Positions 1,770 through 58,901 of a DNA stretch of 64,000 nucleotides are shown piece after piece. The notes beneath the pieces were generated by a model that was not told the DNA's origin, ran no database searches, and saw only the letters and a list, made by a program, of their open reading frames with translations. The position numbers and the translations under genes are program-made. Source of the stretch: Haemophilus sp. C1. Lineage in GTDB: Bacteria; Pseudomonadota; Gammaproteobacteria; Enterobacterales; Pasteurellaceae. The stretch covers positions 7,307 to 71,306 of the forward strand of contig NZ_LDVZ01000008.1 in assembly GCF_001276515.1 (NCBI RefSeq), written 5' to 3'. Each line of letters opens with the position of its first letter. Positions within the stretch are counted from its first letter, which is position 1.

Positions 1770-1860
1770 AATATTTTCCTTTTGTTGGGGTTGAGCCTCC
1801 ACATATCAGCTCATCGACCGTTTGGCACCCCGATGAAGCCTTGATGATATGTGTGTGTTG
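1770..1860 (-). promoter_or_regulatory. Structured rpsB leader (candidate S2 autoregulatory RNA)
   Basis: The rpsB 5' leader contains two nested inverted repeats: outer CATATCA/TGATATG (1845-1851 with 1802-1808) and inner TCATCG/CGATGA (1831-1836 with 1811-1816), enclosing the loop GGGTGCCAAACGGT. A GTGGAGGCTCAACCCC segment follows, before the ribosome-binding site. Gammaproteobacterial rpsB leaders are known to fold and to be repressed by S2, and this one has the right position and a comparable fold. Identity with that Rfam-type family is inferred and was not computed. Confidence 0.55.
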
Positions 1861-1935
1861 TTTGAGTTAAAAATTTTACTCTTTTCTAATGGTAAAAAGA
1901 GAGGTGCGATTTATATCATAAAGTGCGGTGAAATT

Positions 1936-47270: not shown

Positions 47271-48635
47271 TTATGCGGACAAAGTGCGGATTAAATTCGC
47301 CCAATCTTCTTGAATGCTATTGTCTTGCTCGCGGAATTTTGGTACTTCGCGGCAAGCGTTTAATACGGTAGTGTGATCACGGTCAAAGGCACGACCGATT
47401 TCAGGTAAACTGCGGTTTGTGAGTTCTTTTGCTAACGCCATTGCAATTTGGCGAGGACGAGTCACTGAGCGCGCTCGACTTTTTGATTTTAAATCTGAAA
47501 CCTTAATTCGATAATATTCAGCTACTACTTTTTGAATATTTTCAATGGTAACCAAGCGTTCTTGCAGAGCCAAAATATCTTTCAAGGTATCACGCACGAA
47601 ATCAATATCAATGTCACCTCCTTTGAAGTCTTGCATTGCTTTCACTCGATTTAATGCCCCTTCGAGTTCACGCACGTTGGTACGCAAGCGTTGAGCAATG
47701 AAGAAAGCGACTTCTTCTGGTAAATGCATATTATGTTCTTCCGCCTTTTTCAATAAAATCGCTACGCGAGTTTCAAGATCGGGCGGCTCAATAGCTGTTG
47801 TTAAGCCCCAGCCAAAACGTGATTTTAAACGTTCTTCAATTTTTTCAATTTCTTTAGGATAACGATCTGACGTTAAGATAATTTGGCGACCCGTTTCAAA
47901 TAAGTTATTGAATATATGGAAGAATTCTTCTTGGGTTTTTTCTTTTTCAGCGAAAAATTGAATATCATCCACTAAAAGCGCATCGAGAGAACGATAGAAT
48001 TTTTTGAACTGATCCATTTTATTGTCACGCACTGCTTTTACCATATGTTGCATAAAGTTATTTGCGTGAATGTAAAGCACGCGCGCATTCGGTTTATTGG
48101 CTAAAATGCCATTGCCAATTGCGTGTAATAAGTGGGTTTTACCTAAACCTGTACCACCATATAAAAAGAAAGGATTGGCCGAAGGTTCGCCTGGAGCTTG
48201 AGCAAGTTTTTGACCGACTGCGCGTGCGAGTTGGTTCGATTTACCTTCAACAAAGTTATCAAATAAGTGTTTAGTATTTAGATGGGATTCAAATTTTACT
48301 GAAGCACTAGATTCAGCTTGAAAATCTACCGCACTTTCTTTTTTAGGATTGTCACTTGGTGCACTCTCCACTACTTTAGGTGCTGGTTTGACCCCTTCTT
48401 TTAAAGAAATGCGCAGTTCAGGATTTTGTGCAAGTGTTTGACAAATTTGCTGGATTTGTGCGAGATAATGAGTTTCCACCCAACCTTTCACAAACATATT
48501 CGATGCGTATAATACGATGTGGTTATCTGATACTACATCAGCCTGTAAAGGGCGAAGCCAAGTGCTAAGATCGCTGGCTGAAACTTGATCTTGAAGTTGT
48601 AACAGGCAACTTTGCCAAAGATTTGAGAGATTCAC
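47271..48635 (-). CDS. dnaA: Chromosomal replication initiator DnaA
   Basis: The 454-residue initiator has domain I ([21 protein letters not shown]), a variable domain II with an uptake signal at 48328, the AAA+ domain III with Walker [20 protein letters not shown] and Walker [14 protein letters not shown], and DNA-binding domain IV with the signature [18 protein letters not shown]. It is divergent from rpmH. No cluster of TTATCCACA DnaA boxes was seen in the 254-bp intergenic region, so the origin is not evident here. Confidence 0.98.
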
Positions 48636-56682: not shown

Positions 56683-57857
56683 TTGATTGTCGATACTATC
56701 AACAAAATGAATGTCGTTCTTGTCAATGGCTTGAAATACCTTATAGTCAGCAGCTAATTGAAAAACAACATCATTTAAAGCAGCAACTGATTTCTATTAA
56801 TTGCAATGGAGCTCAATGGTTGGCTCCTTTTGAATCTGATGAACAAGGCTTTCGTAATAAAGCTAAAATGGTTGTTAGTGGTAGTGTTGAACGCCCGATA
56901 CTTGGCATTTTAAAAAATCCTAATGATCCACAAAGTGCGATTGATTTGTGTGATTGCCCCCTTTATCCAACTCATTTTTCATTGATTTTTCCAGTTTTGA
57001 AGGATTTTATTGGCCGTGCTGGTTTAGTACCTTATAACATTGCTAAACAAAAAGGTGAGCTCAAATATATTCTGCTCACAGAAAGTATTGCGACGGGAAA
57101 ATTAATGTTGCGTTTTGTATTACGCACAGAAAATAAATTGCCATTAATTCGTCGAGAATTACCCAAATTATTGGAAAAATTACCGCACTTAGAAGTTGTT
57201 AGTATTAATTTACAACCACAGCATGCGGCTATCTTAGAAGGTGAACAAGAAATTTTTCTGACAGAACAACAATTTTTGCCTGAGAATTTCAACAGTATTC
57301 CGCTCTTTATTCGCCCACAAGGTTTCTTTCAAACCAATCCTAAAGTGGCGGCGGGATTATATTCAACCGCTCAGCAATGGGTAAGAGAATTACCAATCTA
57401 TAAAGCCTGGGATTTATTTTGTGGTGTGGGTGGATTTGGCTTACATTGTGCTAAAGCTTTACAGGAAAAATGGGGAAAAAGTATAGAGTTAACTGGAATT
57501 GAAATTTCCTCATCAGCTATTTTTGCAGCGAGTCATTCCGCTAAAATATTAGGTTTAGAACATGTGAATTTCCAATCTCTAGATGCAGCAAGCGTGATTG
57601 AAAATAAAAATGAAAATAAGCCTGATCTTGTGATTGTTAATCCACCACGTCGTGGAATTGGAAAGGAATTAAGTGAATTTCTTAACCAAATTCAACCGCA
57701 CTTTATCTTGTATTCCAGCTGTAATGCCGTGACAATGGGTAAAGATTTACAGCATCTCACTTGTTATAACCCATTGAAAATTCAACTTTTTGATATGTTT
57801 CCGCAAACATCTCACTATGAAGTATTAGTTTTACTAGAAAGAAAAAAGATTAGTTAA
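56679..57857 (+). CDS. rlmC: 23S rRNA (uracil(747)-C(5))-methyltransferase
   Basis: RlmC makes m5U747 in 23S rRNA. The 392-residue product has the N-terminal iron-sulfur cysteines [19 protein letters not shown] and CPLYP-type Cys at [12 protein letters not shown], the SAM site [33 protein letters not shown], and the catalytic Cys in [13 protein letters not shown]. The usual rlmC length is about 375. The start at ATG 56679 overlaps nagZ by 4 nt; the longer frame from 56610 lies inside nagZ. RlmD is the nearest alternative, but the size and Cys pattern favour RlmC. Confidence 0.92.
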
Positions 57858-57894
57858 GGGGAGATAGAAAAAACTAGGGAATTTGAAAGAAGGG

Positions 57895-57974
57895 TGGTGG
57901 AACTAAGCAGAATTGGTCTTAACAGCAAGTGGCTTACTGCGCGCATCCCTGCGGGATTTCTACCCAGCCCACCA
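57895..57974 (+). ncRNA. C4-like antisense RNA (orphan phage immunity RNA)
   Basis: An 80-nt segment closed by a 6-bp stem (TGGTGG 57895-57900 / CCACCA 57969-57974). Inside are a hairpin TAAG/CTTA presenting loop CAGAATTGGT, a second small hairpin presenting AGTGGCTT, and ATCCC-TGC-GGGAT. The two loop sequences are complementary to downstream sites at 58063-58074 and 58047-58054. The phage P1 C4 RNA has this design: about 77 nt, a closing stem, and loops a' and b' that pair with sites a and b at a downstream ribosome-binding site. No phage gene is near. The assignment rests on structure and layout; no covariance search was run. Confidence 0.55.
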
Positions 57975-58046
57975 TAGATTAGAAAATGCATCTTGGTGTT
58001 CTAGCTTTTGCAGCATAAAACTATGCAATAAGGTTGTAAACCTTTA

Positions 58047-58146
58047 AAGCCACTATATCAGGAGACCAATCCTGTCTTCCCACTATATTTGTAAGAAGTT
58101 GGATAATGATAGAATCCTTTATATTAATTGTCAATTAATGTTTTGA
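58047..58146 (+). other. Target site of the C4-like RNA and vestigial short ORF
   Basis: AAGCCACT (58047-58054) is complementary to the second loop and AGACCAAT (58063-58070, with CTG after one mismatch) to the first loop of the upstream RNA. The sites flank and overlap a Shine-Dalgarno AGGAG (58060-58064). Seven nt later a CTG codon opens a 24-codon frame (58072-58146: LSSHYICKKLDNDRILYINC, then QLMF). In P1 the C4 target is a short ORF ahead of the antirepressor; here only that short frame survives and its ATG may have become CTG. A hairpin AAGGTT-GTA-AACCTT precedes (58030-58044). Confidence 0.45.
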
Positions 58147-58167
58147 ATATTATTTCTAATTAAACAA

Positions 58168-58196
58168 AAACCATCCAAATTGATTTTGGATGGTTT
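58168..58196 (-). terminator. Terminator of crp
   Basis: A perfect 12-bp stem (AAACCATCCAAA / TTTGGATGGTTT) with a 5-nt loop, followed on the minus strand by TTGTTTA, 28 bp beyond the crp stop. The plus strand also has a T-run after the stem (CATTTTT). Confidence 0.85.
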
Positions 58197-58223
58197 CATT
58201 TTTGAATAATTTATGATGAAAAA

Positions 58224-58901
58224 TTATCTTGCTCCATACACAACGATGGTTTTTCCATGAGCGTGGATAAGATTCTGATCTTCTAACATTTTAATAATGC
58301 GTCCTACAGTTTCTCGTGAACAACCCACCATTTGCCCTATTTCTTGACGTGTAATTTTGATTTGCATCCCATCAGGATGTGTCATTGCATCAGGCTGTTT
58401 AGCTAAGTTCATTAGCGTTTGAGCAATACGACCTGCCACGTCTAAGAATGCTAAATTACTGACTTGGCGTGAAGTATTTTGTAAACGTCTTGCCAATTGT
58501 GCGGTTAGAAACATTAAGATTTCAGGGTTTGCCTGAATTAATTGACGATATTTTTTATAAGAAATCTCAGCAATTTCACATGTTGTTTTTGTTTTTACCC
58601 AAGCAGAGCGTTTTGAACCTTCATCAAATAATCCAGCCTCACCAAAGAATTGTCCTGCGCCTAAGTAAGTGAGGATCATCTCTTTACCTTCATCATCTTT
58701 TGAAGATACCATTACAGAGCCTTTAATCACATAATAAAGCGTTGTTGCATCTTCACCTGCATGAATTAAAGTTGATTTTGCAGGATATTTATGCAAGTGA
58801 CAGTGAGTAAGAAACCAATCTAAAACTGGATCTCGTTGAGTTATCTCTTCTTCTTGAGGGGAGGTTACAACTTCATCAATTTCGGTTAATTCATTTGACA
58901 T
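58224..58901 (-). CDS. crp: cAMP receptor protein
   Basis: CRP, the global cAMP-dependent regulator, controls sugar use and, with Sxy, competence genes such as dprA at 23-24 kb. The 225-residue product has an N-terminal extension of about 15 residues relative to E. coli, the cAMP site [20 protein letters not shown], the C-helix and the helix-turn-helix [20 protein letters not shown]. Its start overlaps the end of yheU by 16 nt, so it is the last gene of a run with slmA and yheU. Confidence 0.97.

What the first reader, a model, noticed from the sequence alone, without database searches (positions are those of the whole stretch)
57895..58146. Orphan C4-type antisense RNA with its own target, between rlmC and crp
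Seen: an 80-nt RNA-like segment closed by TGGTGG/CCACCA, with two hairpin loops whose sequences (ATTGGTCT and AGTGGCTT) have exact 8-nt complements, in nested order, 110-150 nt downstream. The complements flank and cover a Shine-Dalgarno AGGAG, placed 7 nt before a CTG that opens a 24-codon frame. Known: phage P1 C4 RNA is about 77 nt, is cut out by RNase P, and uses loops a' and b' to block translation at sites a and b ahead of the antirepressor ant. Inferred: this is a C4 homologue left after loss of a prophage, or kept as an immunity or host RNA. Keeping both loops and both targets without any phage gene suggests selection or recent loss.
Basis: partly seen in the sequence, partly recalled or inferred. 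Interest (0 to 1): 0.78.

Follow-up and report, generated by a model that had tools for sequence, protein, structure and literature searches.

The report
Host-owned phage-type antisense RNA gene
Haemophilus and some relatives carry in their chromosome a small RNA gene descended from a phage immunity RNA; it has been kept nearly unchanged without phage genes and may help the bacterium silence one family of phages, though this is untested.

Summary
Between crp and rlmC lies an orphan C4-type antisense RNA gene on the minus strand: a near-consensus sigma-70 promoter (58134-58106), a leader with sites a1 and b1, and a C4 domain (57979-57890). Rfam C4 matches the minus strand below its cut-off (33.9 against 45 bits, E 2e-4); that strand folds as a C4 (z -3.3), the plus strand does not (z -0.05).

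It is no recent prophage scar. A whole-gene model finds 42 intact single copies in 140 Pasteurellaceae genomes (Haemophilus, H. parainfluenzae group, Rodentibacter, Aggregatibacter; 190-248 bits, next 93). The C4 domain is more conserved than crp. All 43 copies form one clade (SH-aLRT 99) beside C4s of phages that share its a' site and precede antirepressor genes. b1 and b' changed together; a2/b2 and the antirepressor are gone.

Best reading: a domesticated C4 that pairs through a' with antirepressor mRNA of that phage family and is checked by its own leader. Expression and function are untested; a host-mRNA role is the main rival.

The parts
58106..58134 (-). sigma-70 promoter TTGACA-N17-TATCAT driving the RNA
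   Evidence: 11 of 12 letters; TTGA[C/A]A N16-18 TATNNT in 42 of 43 copies, the 43rd (L063) keeps TTGACA with a different second hexamer
58076..58098 (-). first leader hairpin (CTTCTTAC..GTGGGAAG); transcript start inferred near here
   Evidence: 5 of 8 pairs show changes on both sides
58059..58074 (-). a1 hairpin CAGGA-TTGGTC-TCCTG; a1 (58074-58063) is complementary to a'
   Evidence: as a hairpin it is nearly invariant, so pairing there is not tested by covariation
58047..58054 (-). b1 site AGTGGCTT complementary to b'
   Evidence: U-A to C-G compensation shared by the 9 Aggregatibacter copies
58030..58044 (-). A/T-rich hairpin at the place of the phage leader's terminator; U-run not kept in Haemophilus (by eye)
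   Evidence: 3 of 6 pairs changed on both sides, 79% of cells paired
57890..57979 (-). C4-type antisense RNA domain
   Evidence: RF01695, 33.9 bits, E 2.2e-4; fold z -3.27
57923..57939 (-). b' stem-loop CAGTAAG-CCA-CTTGCTG (differs from the b' of phage C4s read here)
57908..57919 (-). a' site AGACCAATTCTG, shared with a phage family

Best explanation
It is a host-owned (domesticated) C4 antisense RNA gene, transcribed on the minus strand. A constitutive-looking promoter makes a precursor of about 200 nt: leader with a1 and b1, then the C4 domain. By analogy with phage C4, RNase P would free the C4 domain (inferred). Its a' site then pairs with site a2 in front of the antirepressor gene of a-type phages (those with a' AGACCAAT), helping to keep the antirepressor off, so that such phages entering or waking are pushed to stay repressed. 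The gene's own a1/b1 leader pairs with C4 and so limits or buffers its supply. Shown by computation: gene, strand, promoter, fold, conservation, single clade, shared a' site, kept leader-C4 pairing. Inferred: expression, processing, immunity, autoregulation.
For: Rfam C4 on the minus strand and a C4 fold there only. Whole-gene model: 42 of 140 Pasteurellaceae genomes at 190.2-248 bits, next 93.3; none above 74.8 bits outside the family in a 394-genome sample of the order. Mean C4 identity to the window 93.4% in Rodentibacter and 95.6% in the H. parainfluenzae group, where crp DNA is 78-82%. One clade, SH-aLRT 99, among C4s of a-type phages. Operons in L104, L106, L107, L108, L251, L253 share the core of a', a1 and a2; the genes after a2 in L104 and L107 are antirepressors (AntA or KilA-N, each with P22_AR_C). 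The window's a' pairs with a2 at -8.2 to -14.2 kcal/mol in 14 a-type operons, -3.4 to -10.7 in 30 other C4 operons. Exact a2 sites: 0 of 42 genomes with an intact orphan, 7 of 98 without; exact a' in the 42 occurs once each, at the orphan. Rodentibacter G122, whose orphan is truncated, carries an a-type operon.
Against: The exclusion is not significant (two-sided Fisher p 0.10 over all genomes, 0.067 within the four genera, 0.18 among C4-bearing genomes), and two Rodentibacter genomes without any orphan match (G117, G119) have no a2 site either. The orphan's b' is not that of the Pasteurellaceae a-type phages, so only one of two contacts is kept; a b2 with AAGTGG was found in 21 IMG/VR contigs that look like Enterobacteriaceae phages (GC 0.44-0.50, near copies of phiv142-3). 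No expression data. In the 30 phage-type C4 loci read here a' and b' vary; in the orphan they are frozen, which also fits a fixed host target.
Confidence: 0.42

Rival explanations
1. A domesticated C4 that now regulates one or more host mRNAs through its frozen loops; phage relatives share a' only by descent.
For: a' and the C4 domain are nearly invariant over four genera, b' differs from the phage b' sequences read here, and inheritance without phage genes suits a host target. A. baumannii C4-derived RNAs were proposed to have host targets (PMC5320573, passages read).
Against: The 11-nt complement of a' in 10 genomes of the four genera gave 22 matches; 10 are the orphan itself, and none of the other 12 recurs across genera, though two places recur in the three Haemophilus genomes searched. 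The search was exact and without gene annotation, so it is weak evidence.
Confidence: 0.33
2. A self-contained RNA switch or decoy: leader and C4 domain pair with each other (a1-a', b1-b') and the working product is the precursor or the leader, for example a decoy that soaks up C4 of a-type phages.
For: The window's 210-nt precursor prefers leader-C4 pairing (-70.0 against -62.0 kcal/mol for separate folds, z -4.17); b1 and b' changed together in Aggregatibacter.
Against: The C4 domain is the best conserved part and folds very stably alone (-34.8); no gene on the RNA's strand follows it in the window (rlmC lies opposite).
Confidence: 0.15
3. A decaying relic of a prophage with no function.
For: No a2/b2 or antirepressor; Rfam score below the gathering cut-off; copy truncated in one Rodentibacter genome (G122) and no match in two others.
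Against: Promoter, both loops, P1 stem and both leader sites are kept in 42 genomes of four genera, with compensatory changes, and the RNA is better conserved than crp.
Confidence: 0.04
4. One reading: plus-strand C4 with a downstream target and a 24-codon frame.
For: Exact complementarity exists.
Against: Strand, fold, promoter and frame conservation speak against it.
Confidence: 0.02

Closest known systems
Phage C4 antisense RNA (P1/P7 c4; Rfam RF01695) with its a1b1 leader (RF03163 c4-a1b1, RF01394 isrK)
   Same: Same fold (P1, P2, b' hairpin, unpaired a') and complements to a' and b' in a leader upstream of C4, as in 30 of 30 Pasteurellaceae C4 loci tested (6 nt or more each; 8 of 30 with shuffled leaders); a' shared with a-type phages
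   Different: No a2/b2 (complements downstream were found in 30 of 30 of those loci) and no antirepressor operon, different b', no strong leader terminator, one chromosomal place per lineage, below the Rfam gathering score
Acinetobacter baumannii Group 1 C4-derived sRNAs (PMC5320573; passages read)
   Same: C4-type RNAs in a bacterial genome, expressed from longer transcripts and seemingly processed; host or anti-phage role proposed there
   Different: There many copies with variable a'; here one copy per genome, one clade, frozen a', kept a1b1 leader with compensation, over four genera
IsrK of Salmonella Gifsy-1 (PMC4825925; passages read)
   Same: A leader-type RNA ahead of an antirepressor; Rfam isrK matches leaders of phage C4 loci here (over the cut-off in L031, L036, L048)
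   Different: Lies in a prophage and switches on antirepressor translation
P4 CI RNA with seqA/seqC (as described in PMC4825925; otherwise recalled)
   Same: Antisense RNA processed from a transcript that holds a complementary site upstream
   Different: Different RNA; controls transcription termination of a satellite phage

Membership tests
Rfam C4 antisense RNA RF01695 | Score at or above the curated gathering cut-off (45 bits) | tested here: not met
   33.9 bits in the window; 35.1 in L013, 39.1 in L011, 36.1 in L068
Rfam C4 antisense RNA RF01695 | C4 secondary structure: long P1 stem enclosing P2 and the b' hairpin, a' unpaired | tested here: met
   P1 99.8% of cells paired in 33 copies, though 11 of its 17 pairs never vary
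Rfam C4 antisense RNA RF01695 | Common descent with phage C4 RNAs | tested here: met
   43 copies form one clade beside a-type phage C4s (92 columns, quick tree, many weak forks)
Phage C4 immunity operon | Targets a2 and b2 downstream, b2 over the ribosome site of an antirepressor operon | tested here: not met
   none in the window downstream of C4 (read); neighbours are rlmC, a PTS gene, a narQ-like gene and others, and by eye
Phage C4 immunity operon | a1/b1 sites in a leader upstream of C4 | tested here: met
Phage C4 immunity operon | RNase P processing to an ~80-nt RNA | not testable with these tools
   only the ATGGTG context at the foot of P1 is seen, in the 6 copies printed
isrK RF01394 / c4-a1b1 RF03163 leader | Score at or above gathering cut-off | tested here: not met
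   no hit in the window stretch at E<=10; isrK 26.4 bits in L013

The most novel reading that the evidence does not exclude
A core-genome antisense RNA acts as an inherited anti-phage immunity gene: an ancestor of four genera captured a phage's C4 repressor RNA once, rewired b' and b1 together, dropped the antirepressor, and its descendants use it to hold down antirepressor mRNAs of a whole phage immunity group without carrying the phage.
Probability: 0.35. Interest if true: 0.82.

Novelty: new variant of a known kind. Interest (0 to 1): 0.64.

Why it matters
Most defence systems described are proteins or CRISPR (own knowledge). A single phage-type antisense RNA, kept as a chromosomal gene over several genera with a specificity (a') shared with phages, would be an RNA-only immunity gene and a clear case of bacteria taking over a phage's lysogeny switch. 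Whatever its role, it is a strongly conserved small RNA gene in Haemophilus influenzae and Aggregatibacter that Rfam's cut-off misses, and it makes a direct prediction of a phage target.

Tried and rejected
Plus-strand C4 with downstream target: rejected. Recent prophage remnant: rejected. A phage carrying the orphan form: GTTAAGACCAATTCTG in IMG/VR gave 7 stretches, 0 with C4 context; blastn of the interval against the phage collection found one 46-base match at E 0.3. A phage target with both orphan sites: GATTGGTCT N5-35 AGTGGC in 140 family genomes gave 40 matches, of which 32 are the orphan's own leader, 2 (G062, G097) are leaders of phage C4 loci and 6 were not looked at further; a2 plus AAGTGG gave 21 IMG/VR contigs of Enterobacteriaceae look, so the b match there may be coincidence. 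Conserved host target of a': none across genera. Exclusion of a-type prophages by the orphan: suggestive, not significant (the 27 and 70 C4-bearing genomes there were counted by hand, whose matches may include some orphans). Published description: searches (open-access PMC, capped listings, no supplements) listed no paper on a C4 RNA beside crp in Pasteurellaceae; in the H. influenzae RNA-seq paper PMC4144887 'crp' and 'C4 antisense' do not occur in the main text, and its intergenic table was not readable here.

Full report
What is there. Rfam C4 (RF01695) matches 57979-57890 on the minus strand with 33.9 bits, E 2.2e-4, below its gathering score of 45; the gathering-level scan of the window does not list it. 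The minus strand of 57891-57977 folds to -34.8 kcal/mol as a C4 (long P1 stem, P2, b' hairpin, unpaired a'; z -3.27), the plus strand to -24.8 with z -0.05. The promoter scan of 57600-58400 gave 3 sites, all minus, no more than shuffles (2.8), but TTGACA-N17-TATCAT at 58134-58106 matches 11 of 12 letters and its pattern is kept in 42 of 43 copies. So the gene runs minus: promoter, first hairpin, a1 hairpin CAGGA-TTGGTC-TCCTG, b1 AGTGGCTT, an A/T-rich hairpin, then the C4 domain. The CTG frame is kept in 10 of 11 H. influenzae-group copies and differs elsewhere. No terminator was found after C4 on that strand; the 3' end of the transcript is unknown.

Conservation. The interval is in 10 of 10 genus genomes. 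A covariance model of the whole gene (R1, 33 copies) finds 42 copies at 190.2-248 bits in 140 Pasteurellaceae genomes, one per genome; the next match, 93.3 bits, is the a-type C4 operon of G122. They lie in four genera: 10 of 10 in g1, 11 of 11 in g21, 9 of 9 in g5 and 12 of 15 in g38. In 394 genomes sampled from the order (family members included) the best match outside the family had 74.8 bits. Of the 42 intact copies, 31 lie in a ~3-kb locus with crp (crp and rlmC of the window confirmed by NCBIfam); 9 in Aggregatibacter and 2 in g38 (G129, G130) do not. In the 7 Aggregatibacter loci printed, accA lies on the promoter side (confirmed for L064). The gene on the other side differs between lineages (rlmC, a PTS gene, a narQ-like gene and others).

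Selection. Mean identity of the C4 domain to the window is 98.0% (g1, 10 loci), 95.6 (g21, 11), 93.4 (g38, 12) and 88.6 (g5, 9), while crp DNA is 78-82% identical in g38 and g21 (no crp in 11 loci). The leader as a whole is 55-61% identical outside g1, yet a1 pairs with a' at 12 of 12 positions in 41 of 43 copies and 11 of 12 in 2, and b1 with b' at 6-8 of 8; the 9 Aggregatibacter copies replace a U-A by a C-G pair between b1 and b', one event counted nine times. In the counted secondary structure 9 pairs change on both sides (shuffled mean 6.1, 6 of 500 shuffles as high); 5 are in the first leader hairpin, 3 in the third, 1 in P1, none in the a1 hairpin, P2 or the b' hairpin; the count of further pair types is not above shuffles. 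The 210-nt precursor prefers leader-C4 pairing (-70.0, z -4.17; separate folds sum to -62.0). The full fold is lower than the separate folds in 36 of 43 copies, a weak test because extra partners can only help.

Phage relatives. C4 is common in Pasteurellaceae: 95 of 140 genomes over the cut-off. In the 30 loci fetched there, both a' and b' have complements of 6 nt or more upstream and downstream in 30 of 30 (8 of 30 with shuffled leaders); a promoter-like pattern was seen upstream in 18 of 30; a terminator-like hairpin in the leader was read by eye in many. Of 12 loci scanned, isrK is over its cut-off in L031, L036 and L048, and c4-a1b1 scores below its cut-off in L031 and L036. One subgroup shares the orphan's a' core (AGACCAAT), a1 (GATTGGTCTCC) and a2 (ATTGGTCT): L104, L106, L107, L108, L251 and L253/L163, and 10 of 16 IMG/VR stretches. 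The genes after a2 are antirepressors in the two tested, L104 and L107 (AntA or KilA-N with P22_AR_C). Related operons occur in Enterobacteriaceae phages, annotated as anti-repressor in phiv142-3 and Tyrion. In a tree of 63 C4 domains (43 orphans, 12 a-type phage loci, 8 of the 30 other loci) the orphans form one clade (SH-aLRT 99); the fork that joins them to most a-type C4s has 88, and one a-type row (Tyrion) falls outside (92 columns, quick method). I read this as one capture and descent in the host line.

How it may work. The window's a' pairs with a2 of 14 a-type operons at -8.2 to -14.2 kcal/mol (mean -12.6; the weakest, Mannheimia phage L248, has a variant a'), and with 30 other C4 operons at -3.4 to -10.7 (mean -6.0). 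Its b', however, is a stem with a CCA loop, unlike the b' of the Pasteurellaceae phage loci, whose downstream partner contains a GG or AGG ribosome-site-like stretch in most (by eye). In phages such as phiv142-3 both a2 and a b2 with AAGTGG occur, but these look like Enterobacteriaceae phages and I take it as possible coincidence. Exact a2 occurs in 7 of 140 genomes: 0 of 42 with an intact orphan, 7 of 98 without (Fisher p 0.10). Rodentibacter G122 is telling but single: its copy beside crp has lost the C4 part (L252), and it is the only genome of these four genera with an exact a2 site (L251). G117 and G119 lack both. Within the four genera p is 0.067. No host target of a' shared between genera was seen: 22 exact 11-nt matches in 10 genomes, 10 of them the orphan itself; two other places recur in the three Haemophilus genomes only.

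What is known. P1/P7 C4 is cut by RNase P, and its a' and b' loops act on the target mRNA (as told in PMC5320573, passages read; the original papers were not read). Weinberg et al. 2010 list the c4 and c4-a1b1 motifs (PMC2864571, passages). A. baumannii has a group of C4-derived RNAs, abundant and seemingly processed (PMC5320573). IsrK of Gifsy-1 acts in trans, and that paper describes P4 CI RNA with seqA and seqC (PMC4825925, passages). Further papers seen as passages only: PMC8201110 and PMC8198154, PMC4144887, PMC3262788, PMC4986893, PMC7067206 (its antisense RNA is a different one). I found no report of this gene in the searches listed under Tried and rejected; supplements were not searchable.

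Verdict. An orphan, chromosomal C4-type RNA gene on the minus strand: about 0.9 sure. That it is under selection in the host: about 0.9. That its main job is immunity against a-type phages: about 0.4; a host-mRNA target about 0.33; a leader-based switch or decoy about 0.15. It is a new variant of a known kind: C4-derived host RNAs are described in Acinetobacter, but a single-copy one inherited over four genera, with a kept leader and a specificity shared with phages, did not turn up in those searches.

Noticed in passing
window 1790-1875 (-): Rfam t44 RNA (58.2 bits, gathering 44).
   Followed up: no
window 48081-48161 (+): Rfam AsdA, antisense RNA of dnaA mRNA (53.9 bits, gathering 52).
   Followed up: no
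L252 (G122:C1) and L251 (G122:C2): Rodentibacter copy beside crp with leader and a1 kept but the C4 part replaced by other sequence; the same genome has an a-type C4 operon.
   Followed up: yes
G087: One Pasteurellaceae genome holds 27 matches to C4, six of its contigs with the exact a2 site; a repeated phage element or assembly copies.
   Followed up: no
L256 (G097:C1 168300-170200): A phage-type C4 in which sequence from a' onward seems to run straight into the antirepressor frame, with a2, b2 and the start missing (by eye).
   Followed up: no
loci L011-L030, L061-L072: The gene on the 3' side of the orphan differs between lineages while crp or accA stays on the promoter side; the 3' end may be a preferred breakpoint or insertion site.
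   Followed up: partly
L247 (phage phiv142-3), L258-L278: Phages that look Enterobacteriaceae-type carry a C4 system with the same a' core and a downstream site containing AAGTGGAG just before the antirepressor start.
   Followed up: partly
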